Positions 35,801 through 38,800 of a stretch of DNA of 64,000 nucleotides are shown one piece after another. Position numbers and translations under genes: made by a program. The first letter of the stretch is position 1; every line of letters starts with the position of its first letter. Below the pieces are notes generated by a model. The model was not told the origin of the DNA, made no database searches, and worked only from the letters and a program-made list of their open reading frames with translations. The stretch is from Isoetes taiwanensis (taxonomy: Eukaryota; Streptophyta; Lycopodiopsida; Isoetales; Isoetaceae), in NCBI GenBank assembly GCA_021234155.1, contig JAJEKV010000020.1:18467018-18531017 (forward strand), given 5' to 3'.

Positions 35801-38800
35801 CTTGCAGCTCAATTTGGATGGAAGTTGTATCAACTTGATGTGAAAAGCGCTTTCTTGAACGGAGAGCTCAAGGAGTTGGTCTATTTGGAGCAACCACTTG
35901 GATACAAGCATGGATACAAGCACGAAGGTAACGATTTTGTTTGCAAACTGAACAAAGCATTATATGGGCTAAAACAGTCATCTCGGGCTTGGTATTCCAA
36001 ACTTGATAGCTACTTATTGAGCAAAAATTTTGTAAGGAGCAGTGCAGATTCTAGTCTCTATATTAAGCATGATGGTGATGACATTACTTTGATCGTAGTA
36101 TGTAGTATATGTAGATGATCTCATTGTCACGGGCAGTTCCCTCAAGTTGATTCAACATGAGATAAAACAGTTTGGAGAGTTCTTTGACATGACAACTCTT
36201 GGAGAGTTACACTACTTCTTGGGCATTGAAGTGCAGAAGGCTGCCGATGGAATCTTTATCTGTCAGAAGAAGTATGCAGCAGATTTACTAAGGAAGACCA
36301 GACCTGATATATCATTTGCTGTAGGAGTATTGAGTAGATTTTTGGCTAATCCTACTCAAACACATTGGATTGCTGCTAAGAGAGTGCTAAGATACATCAA
36401 AGGAACACATGATTTTGGTATTTTGTATGAATCAAATAGTCAGCTTGATGTAGTTGGATACAGACTCTAGACTCTGGACTCTGATATGGCTACACGAGAA
36501 GATCCACAAGTGGTTATGCATTCTCAATTGGAAATGGTGTTGTAACGTGGAAAAGTAAGAGACAAAACACGGTTGCAATTAGCACTGCTGAAGCAGAATA
36601 TAAAGGTTGTAGCATTGCAGCATGTGAATCTGTTTGGATTCAAAAATTCATGGAAGAAATTGGGATCAATGACAGCAGACCCACTTGCATTTTCACTGAT
36701 AACATGAGCAGATAACATGAGCAGCATACGCATTGCAAACAATCCTGTTTTTCATGGCAGAACTAAGCACATTGAGACTACCTACCATTTTTTACGAGAA
36801 AAGGTTGAGAATGGAGAAATTGATATCCAATACTGTTGAGAAATGAGCCTTCTATGATTGGGTGGACAGGCTGGGGATCAAACCCAGGACCTCTTGCTTG
36901 TAAGCCAAGTACTCTACCACTGAGCTACCGGCCCTTTGATGGGCTTTCGGCACTCTTCCAGTGGGTCATTCTTCAATTCTTCATGTGTGCCCATTATACA
37001 TGCTCCAGCATTCCAACATTCCCCTTTAATGGGCACACCAATCCATTCCAGCCTTCACCACAATCCACATGCTCCCCTCCTCGTGCAACTCCACCACTGC
37101 GGGAGTTGGGCTTTCCACTGGCCAAGCTTTGCTCCCCTCCTCGGGCAACTCCACCACTACGGGAGTTGGGCTTTCCACTGGCCAAGCTTTGCTCATTCTC
37201 ACCCCTACACATTGGGGACTATCCCGGTGCAGTCAAGCACCTTCTACTTGGGACCATGGCTCTGATACCATGTTGAGAAATGAGCCTTCTATGATTGGGT
37301 CGAACCCAGGACCTCTTGCTTGCAAGCCAAGTACTCTACCACTGAGCTACCGGCCCTTTGATGGGCACTCTTCCACTGGGTCATTCTTCATGTGTGCCCA
37401 TTACACATGCTCTAGCATTCCAACAAATACTACAGGTCAGAAGATCAAATTGTAGATATTTTCACAAAGCCATTAGGAAAAGCCAAGTTTGAGGCTTTCA
37501 GGTTCGTTCTTGGCGTGAGGAAAGAGGAGTCTGGAATATCACATTAAGGGGGAGTGTTAGAATAGTATAATGTGATATATATTGGACATGTTAAGTCATT
37601 GTAACTTAACGTTGTAACTTAAGTTGTACCCCATGGGACATTTTATATTAGCCCATCGGTCCCCTCATTCTTTATCTTTTTCCCGATTTGCCACCCAACA
37701 TGAGGACGTGGCACATATATATGTACATGTCATAAGTTAGTGTAATACACAAGTTTCTTGCTCCTTTGTTACTTGGTGCGTCTCCTCCTCCCTCCATACT
37801 GTTCTGTTGTTCAGATCATCTTCTCCACTCAACAAAAGCTAAAGTATTCATAGGAGGTGAAGAAATTCTAGTTTTAGAATAGAAAGTAATAGTAACTTTG
37901 TCCTGCAGCTTGTAATAGTCAATGATAGATTGGTGAAGAAATTCTAGTTTTAGAATAGAAAGTAATAGTAACTTTGTCCTGCAGCTTGTAATAGTCAATG
38001 ATAGATTGATATTCACGGGGTAACCGATATTTGACATATTTCCACCTGTTGCAAAATATTGCTCCCTCAATCCTTTGAATTGTTGCATATAATCTCTCAT
38101 GTTAGTGCAATCTGTCAACCTTAAGTTGTCCATCTTACTTTGAATATTAAGCTATACCAGCGCTACCACACCGGATCCCATCAGAACTCCGAAGTTAGGC
38201 GCGCTTGGGTCGGAATAGTACTGGGATGGGTGACCTTTCGGGAAGTCCCGGTGCTGCACCCAACCACCACCTTTACCAATGAGCCAACTTCTTTCTTCTT
38301 TTTTTGGTATCAGAGCCAAGTTTCGATCTTGGGACCTGTGTGTTATGGGCCCACCACGCTTCCGCTGCGCCACTCTGATCACAACCGGCTCTGATACCAT
38401 GAAGGCAAATGAGATACACGAAGTAGCTAGGCTAGTGAGTGAACTGAATGAAACTATAAAGGCATGACTATGGCTTTATAGTCGAGCCATGTCAGCAACA
38501 CATGGCATGTCTAATCATCTAGAGAGTATGTCATGGAAAGTATAATGTGCTAAGAGTGTCCTTGCAAAATATAATCAAATAATTACAGAAAGTCCGAATT
38601 TACTTTGGTACTTTTTCTTGCAAACGTCAGGCAATAATGCGGTGGTTGGATGTGGGCGATGGTTTTTTTGTGCATCTCAGGTATGTGAAATTTTTTCATT
38701 GGTTAAAGCTAAACAAAGTAAGTGTTCTTGTCCTGCCTTTTATCGTGCTTGGAATGAATAATGAAAAAGATTCTAGCACATGTTCTACCAAGGAGATGCG

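What the first reader, a model, noticed from the sequence alone, without database searches (positions are those of the whole stretch)
38150..38553. Complete tRNA-iMet with CCA joined to a 5S-bearing LTR end, facing a second primer site and LTR
Seen: a 5S-like LTR segment, then the full 75-base complement of initiator tRNA-Met including CCA, 7 bases, then primer site and LTR of another family in opposite orientation. Known: plus-strand strong-stop synthesis normally copies only the first 12-18 nt of the primer tRNA and stops at a modified base; plant tRNA genes lack CCA. Inference: reverse transcriptase read through the whole primer tRNA, and this intermediate was joined head to head with a second strong-stop product and integrated or repaired into the intron.
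Basis: partly seen in the sequence, partly recalled or inferred. Interest (0 to 1): 0.88.

Follow-up and report, generated by a model that had tools for sequence, protein, structure and literature searches.

The report
Primer tRNA copied into quillwort retrotransposons
A plant retrotransposon copy carries a full DNA copy of the finished initiator tRNA that normally only primes its copying, and the same genome holds about twenty other insertions where the copying enzyme ran on into that tRNA, so a step usually studied in test tubes can be read from a genome.

Summary
The tRNA observation is real. Window 38305-38379 is the complement of mature initiator tRNA-Met: 71 of 72 positions match the commonest host gene, and CCA is present although 47 of 47 other distinct gene copies read lack it. 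The setting was misread. The "5S-bearing LTR" is not an LTR: it is host-type 5S sequence (96% to host 5S arrays) joined to the head of a dispersed tRNA-like repeat. Both lie inside one Ty1/copia-type element in reverse orientation, in place of about 609 bp around its gag start.

CCA plus 25 nt of tRNA complement, past A58, occurs exactly 23 times in this genome (control 0). All 22 others were read: 20 follow an ...ACAGT end, the tRNA stretch ends at 28-66 nt, and several run into another LTR, direct or inverted. In both composites whose two outer ends I could identify, a 5-bp duplication flanks the unit; for others the ends or duplications were not found. Primer-tRNA read-through is thus recurrent and can be integrated. 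How the window locus itself formed is less certain.

The parts
37836..38153 (-). gag-region segment of the copia-type element (same family and orientation as the LTR at 38400-38553); contains a 76-bp tandem duplication at 37856-38008
   Evidence: matches L009 969-1306 and others; L018 111 of 112 over 38042-38153
38154..38270 (+). 5S rRNA sequence lacking about 9 nt at its 5' end, with part of the 3' trailer
38268..38304 (-). head of the dispersed tRNA-like repeat T (A box TTGGCTCATTGG), up to about 38297, then G and A6 next to the tRNA CCA (read on the minus strand); 3-nt overlap with the 5S part
38305..38379 (-). complete mature initiator tRNA-Met with CCA (75 nt)
38380..38386 (-). 7 nt of the element's own sequence following its primer site (GGTTGTG)
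38387..38399 (-). primer binding site TGGTATCAGAGCC for initiator tRNA-Met
38400..38553 (-). LTR of the copia-type element; lacks the first TG and 23 nt near its 3' end

Best explanation
The insert is a by-product of reverse transcription in which the enzyme used the primer tRNA itself as a template, from its CCA end to its 5' end, and switched templates at RNA ends; it is the most extreme of a recurrent class of primer-tRNA read-through products in this genome. For this locus polarity gives the most economical order. On the strand that carries the copied tRNA (window plus strand) the 5S is in sense, while the T head, the tRNA and the primer site with LTR are all antisense copies. So a 5S precursor RNA would have served as an accidental primer on a T transcript; the enzyme ran towards that transcript's 5' end, jumped to the 3' CCA of a mature initiator tRNA, copied all of it including A58, and jumped to element sequence 7 nt beyond the primer site. 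The 5S end was joined to gag separately. Shown: the parts, their order and polarity, both mature tRNA ends, recurrence of long CCA-bearing primer-tRNA copies next to LTR-like ends, and 5-bp duplications around two such composites. Inferred: that the window locus arose during reverse transcription rather than later repair, the 5S-primer step, and the order of jumps.
For: CCA absent from 47 of 47 other gene copies read and present here; 71 of 72 identity to the host gene; tRNA joined 7 nt from the element's own primer site for that tRNA; polarity of the pieces; 22 further CCA-bearing long complements, 20 after ...ACAGT, about 19 distinct events; normal copies of the small element have only 12 nt of tRNA match after the LTR, seen within L113 and L115; 5-bp duplications GATAA (L112) and GATGT (L116) around composites. 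A review states that unmodified primer tRNA lets plus-strand synthesis run to the tRNA 5' end and that loss of the m1A58 enzyme extends synthesis past A58 in cells (PMC13191261, passages).
Against: At the window locus the tRNA is not attached to an LTR U5 end, unlike at 20 of 22 other places; none of those reaches the tRNA 5' end (28-66 nt). The 5S primer step has no precedent among the loci read. Left end of the element copy is lost, so no target duplication can be tested here. No duplication was found for the composites L103 and L097 in the stretch read, nor for L113 and L115, whose left ends were not located. The LTR keeps its U3, so a 5' genomic RNA that starts in R cannot be the only template.
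Confidence: 0.55

Rival explanations
1. Repair of a double-strand break inside an already integrated element: about 609 bp around the gag start were lost and the gap was filled with a patchwork of templated pieces (5S, T repeat) plus a captured cDNA of mature tRNA.
For: 5S and T are multicopy, so DNA-templated filler could supply both in any orientation; joins show 0-3 nt overlaps (read); templated filler at plant breaks is known (recalled).
Against: A DNA template does not give the CCA, so a tRNA cDNA is still needed; the tRNA lies only 7 nt from the primer site, a coincidence under repair; cDNA primed directly from the two broken ends would give the opposite polarity for the pieces next to each end.
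Confidence: 0.27
2. One reading: plus-strand strong-stop DNA of a 5S-bearing (Cassandra-like) LTR read through the whole tRNA and was joined head to head with a strong-stop product of another family.
For: Head-to-head or head-to-tail joins of LTR-tRNA products do exist in this genome (L116, L103, L097/L101, L108).
Against: No 5S copy read is followed by a primer site (0 of 64 places); the spacer is a repeat head unrelated to LTR ends; gag of the same element lies beyond the 5S.
Confidence: 0.06
3. A host tRNA gene or a tRNA-derived SINE sits here and CCA arose by chance.
For: ARAGORN calls an intact tRNA.
Against: Neither the 5' nor the 3' flank of the gene arrays is present; 45 of 47 genes are followed by GTT and 2 by TTT, 47 of 47 preceded by AAG; position 39 breaks a conserved anticodon-stem pair (recalled numbering); no other hit spans tRNA plus CCA in the 40 scored candidates.
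Confidence: 0.03
4. Assembly error joined unrelated repeats.
For: The assembly that it matches in size used nanopore reads and optical maps (PMC8566536, passages); no raw reads could be checked.
Against: The locus lies inside a 21.4 Mb contig; joins fall at biological ends (mature tRNA termini), and composites of the related class recur with distinct endpoints.
Confidence: 0.04

Closest known systems
Plus-strand strong-stop synthesis and read-through of primer tRNA in retroviruses (HIV-1; PMC13191261, passages)
   Same: The primer tRNA is copied past A58; with unmodified tRNA, synthesis is described as running to the tRNA 5' end.
   Different: There it is a biochemical product said not to serve as an active template; here copies are found fixed in a genome, two of them in composites with target duplications.
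TRIM elements
   Same: Elements that carry most of the recurrent class here: short LTR (158 bp), GT spacer, Met primer site, purine tract.
   Different: Composites have tRNA-derived sequence after the primer site and lack or share the internal region.
Cassandra (PMC7215508, PMC10853983, passages)
   Same: 5S sequence near an initiator-Met primer site.
   Different: Here 5S is not in an LTR and is not followed by a primer site as part of an LTR.
Helenus and Ajax, TRIMs with tRNA- or 5S-derived LTR parts (PMC10886601; abstract, first of six parts, passages)
   Same: Small-RNA sequence combined with LTR elements; a Helenus-like element lies 0.9 kb away in the window.
   Different: In Helenus the tRNA-like part is inside the LTR as a promoter and lacks the mature CCA end; here a mature tRNA copy lies next to the primer site.
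LINE-mediated chimeric retrogenes with small RNAs (PMC13174262, search listing only)
   Same: Reverse transcriptase switching between small RNAs.
   Different: No target-primed layout, and the polarity of the end pieces does not fit it.
MIR1511 (Rfam RF03728)
   Same: A hairpin that pairs a primer-site sequence with the tRNA 3' end (fold -42.6 kcal/mol, z -4.1).
   Different: 20.9 bits against a cut-off of 100; no expression data.

Membership tests
Cassandra TRIM | 5S sequence inside an LTR followed by the Met primer site | tested here: not met
   0 of 64 5S places (50 distinct contexts) in fetched loci has a primer site within 250 nt; at the locus the TGG after the 5S belongs to a whole tRNA copy. 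The genome was not searched exhaustively with a Cassandra pattern.
Ty1/copia-type LTR retrotransposon (the host element) | LTRs, Met primer site, gag zinc knuckle, pre-integrase and integrase domains | tested here: met
   Full-length copies with two LTRs; zf-CCHC, gag_pre-integrs, rve and Pol_BBD in 2 of 5 pieces of copy L009 scanned, none in the other 3. The window copy itself is truncated; reverse transcriptase position was not examined.
Integrated primer-tRNA read-through product | LTR end followed by primer-tRNA complement beyond the primer site, with CCA | tested here: inconclusive
   Met at 20 of 22 other places, taking ...ACAGT as LTR end; the similarity to a defined LTR was shown for 9 of 20 regions. 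At the window locus the CCA side is joined to a repeat head, so strict membership fails there although the copied tRNA is complete.
Integrated primer-tRNA read-through product | Target site duplication around the composite | tested here: inconclusive
   Present in L112 and L116; not found in the stretches read for L103, L097, L092, L101, L105, L113, L115, where an outer end was usually not located; not testable at the window locus.
tRNA gene | Flanks of host genes and no encoded CCA | tested here: not met
SINE or dispersed tRNA-5S composite | Many copies with the same joins | tested here: inconclusive
   No other hit spans the joins (40 scored candidates each); a direct pattern search for the 5S-T join did not complete.
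MIR1511 | Rfam score at or above the gathering cut-off (100 bits) | tested here: not met
   20.9 bits

The most novel reading that the evidence does not exclude
In this plant the reverse transcriptases of several LTR families regularly copy their primer tRNA past A58, end mainly in the anticodon and D loops (at modified bases, or at the ends of 3' tRNA halves used as primers), and integrate the failed products as LTR-tRNA-LTR composites. When such a tRNA copy lands near an inverted primer site, as in this window, it makes a ready hairpin whose arm matches primer sites: a possible birth route for primer-site-targeting microRNAs of the miR1511/miR845 type.
Probability: 0.3. Interest if true: 0.85.

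Novelty: new variant of a known kind. Interest (0 to 1): 0.7.

Why it matters
The stop at modified A58 of the primer tRNA is thought to secure the second strand transfer. Genomic insertions that passed it are a natural record of where synthesis ends inside the tRNA and what the enzyme does next. They make it testable whether hypomodified tRNAs or tRNA halves prime plant retrotransposons, and how composite two-family elements arise.

Tried and rejected
A poly-A tail on the tRNA (A6 after CCA) was considered as a mark of tRNA surveillance, but the A run may belong to the T repeat, so it is not used. A mosaic of two element lineages (LTR nearest L002-L004 and L009, gag nearest L018) was looked at and is not decisive. 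My note listed L100 and L111 among loci that run into an inverted LTR; one search shows that they run into a direct one.

Not done: a search for other 5S-T joins, a search for T variants with the same A run, an exhaustive Cassandra search, flanks of the places with 1-2 mismatches (nine such places; one of them, TAGTATC..., fell inside L103), empty-site or sister-species comparison.

Unanswered because the machine was busy: the genome search; the same requests were repeated. Scripts only waited.

Literature: 10 of 10 searches. None of the listings showed integrated full-length primer-tRNA copies in LTR elements; most subscription papers are outside the library, so this is weak evidence of absence.

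Full report
What is there. The window is plus-strand sequence of contig C1019 in a 1,658,258,908-base assembly of 1110 contigs. The published Isoetes taiwanensis assembly is 1658.30 Mb, in 204 scaffolds plus 909 contigs (PMC8566536, passages), so the host is very probably that quillwort; this is inference from size. At 38305-38379 the minus strand holds an intact initiator tRNA-Met ending in CCA. Host initiator genes lie in arrays on C971, C534 and C1021. Of 48 distinct copies in the loci fetched, one is the window locus; the other 47 are followed by GTT (45) or TTT (2), never CCA, and all 47 are preceded by AAG. The locus differs from the commonest gene only at position 39, and it has T opposite A58 (read from the sequence, standard numbering recalled). 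Both mature ends are exact; the final A of CCA and one or two bases at the 5' join could be shared with the neighbours.

The neighbours. The LTR at 38400-38553 (reverse) belongs to a family whose full copies, about 5 kb in several cases and about 1 kb in two, read LTR - TGGTATCAGAGCC - GGTTGTG or GGTCGTG - AGAAGAAAATGAG, with small variations. Of five coding pieces scanned from copy L009, one has a zinc knuckle and one has gag_pre-integrase, integrase and Pol_BBD domains; three gave nothing. The locus keeps the primer site and 7 nt, then has the tRNA. Left of the insert, 37836-38153 is gag-region sequence of the same family in the same orientation. Against L009 the locus lacks bases 360-968, 609 bp (counted on the sequences printed). 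The LTR lacks its first TG and 23 nt near its end.

The insert, on the element's sense strand, is: tRNA with CCA; A6-G; head of a tRNA-like repeat T; antisense 5S; gag. The T 22-mer has 448 genome hits at up to 3 mismatches against 6 for the reversed control; 15 copies were read and most show A-box and B-box-like motifs (motif consensus recalled). The 5S part is 96% to host 5S arrays and includes part of their 3' trailer. None of 64 5S places in L018-L046 (50 distinct contexts) is followed within 250 nt by a primer site; one locus, L034, has a primer-site-like string elsewhere. None of 15 T copies carries 5S or a primer site within its 801 bp.

Recurrence. The pattern CCA plus 25 nt of tRNA complement has 112 genome matches at up to 3 mismatches and no control match; 23 are exact, and the gene-array copies listed have 3 mismatches because they read AAC in place of TGG (the list stops at 100 places). 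I read the flanks of all 22 other exact matches (20 regions, two places in L118). In 20 of 22 the tRNA stretch directly follows ...ACAGT; the exceptions are L093 and L099, which look like one duplicated event. L097 and L101 share left flank and join, and the two places in L118 form a tandem duplication, which leaves about 19 distinct events. Exact runs are 28-66 nt; none reaches 75. Upstream similarity to one defined 158-bp LTR was found in 9 of 20 regions, five loci share a longer repeat of about 0.5-1 kb ending in the same way, and the rest are called LTR-like from their ends only. After the tRNA stretch the sequence runs into a direct copy of the 158-bp LTR (L098, L100, L111, and L102 after a short stretch), an inverted one (L096, L103), or the inverted end of another LTR-like repeat (L097/L101, L108); the others are not identified.

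Endpoints. With duplicated events counted once and three endpoints set by hand allowing 1-2 mismatches (L092, L100, L107), they fall at 28, 36, 37, 38, 38, 39, 42, 42, 43, 50, 55, 56, 57, 57, 57, 58, 59, 61 and 66. 16 of 19 lie in the best pair of windows (8 and 7 nt wide), reached by 2 of 5000 uniform random sets scanned in the same way. These windows correspond to the anticodon and D loops (recalled numbering). Chance matches can lengthen a run. The pattern itself requires passage of A58, so nothing can be said about how often synthesis stops there.

Integration. L112 reads GATAA - LTR (158 bp) - GT - 61 nt of tRNA complement - second LTR from base 11 - GATAA. L116 reads GATGT - an LTR part folded back on itself - GT - 38 nt of tRNA complement - an inverted small element - GATGT; there the tRNA stretch follows the inverted U3 end, which resembles the U5 end. 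These are the two composites whose outer ends were both identified. L113 and L115 join a long LTR-like repeat plus tRNA stretch to a complete small element; their left ends were not located and the right-hand 5-mer was not found before a TG upstream. For L103 and L097 the left-flank 5-mer was not found again at an LTR end in the stretch read, and for L092, L101 and L105 not in the short stretch held. These neither support nor exclude integration as a unit. The exact join GTYACAGTTGGTATCAGAGC occurs 957 times; 18 of the 22 places have it, about 2%, but copies are not independent.

Mechanism. A single synthesis run explains the polarity at the window locus if 5S precursor RNA was the primer and T RNA, mature tRNA and element RNA were successive templates; the 5S-gag join, which shows no overlap, would be separate. 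Break repair with a captured tRNA cDNA is the main rival. I hold the wider claim, that primer-tRNA read-through recurs in this genome and can be integrated, at about 0.85; the route at this locus is much less sure (0.55).

A by-product. The primer site and the tRNA 3' end form a hairpin (-42.6 kcal/mol, z -4.1, 0 of 200 shuffles as good) that Rfam weakly likens to MIR1511 (20.9 bits, cut-off 100). fve-miR1511 targets the Met primer site, and miR845 and miR1511 are said to be evolutionarily linked to initiator tRNA (PMC9780303 and PMC8215267, passages). This suggests, without showing it, how such hairpins could arise.

Noticed in passing
36834-37425: A Helenus-like TRIM (minus strand): LTRs with a tRNA-Val-like sequence, Met primer site next to the LTR, purine tract AAAGGGGAA, and the 5-bp repeat AATAC on both sides (read). 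The 2024 description names Selaginella as the only plant with a characterised Helenus (PMC10886601).
   Followed up: partly
38300-38405, minus strand: Strong hairpin from primer site plus tRNA 3' end, weakly MIR1511-like.
   Followed up: partly
L032, L033, L034, L039, L045, L046: Dispersed single 5S copies; several end in GTTAAAAT-like tails followed by short tandem repeats (TTC, TTCC, TATTC, TATC), which suggests a 5S-headed SINE.
   Followed up: no
G000 contigs C971, C534, C1021: Initiator tRNA-Met genes in large tandem arrays, with neighbours often about 660 bp apart.
   Followed up: no
G000:C963:7346941, C1039:6390552, C1047:9773633: Three CCA-bearing complements with paired changes (CAGG...CCTGG) that fit a second initiator tRNA variant.
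   Followed up: no
L103 with L119 (C1031): A concatemer-like arrangement: LTR, tRNA stretch, inverted LTR, purine tract, tRNA stretch again, inverted element.
   Followed up: partly
L118 (C1099:3767000-3768500): Two head-to-tail copies, 442 bp apart and 99.6% identical, of an LTR-like end plus 59 nt of tRNA complement.
   Followed up: no
37856-38008: Exact 76-bp tandem duplication within the gag-region segment.
   Followed up: no
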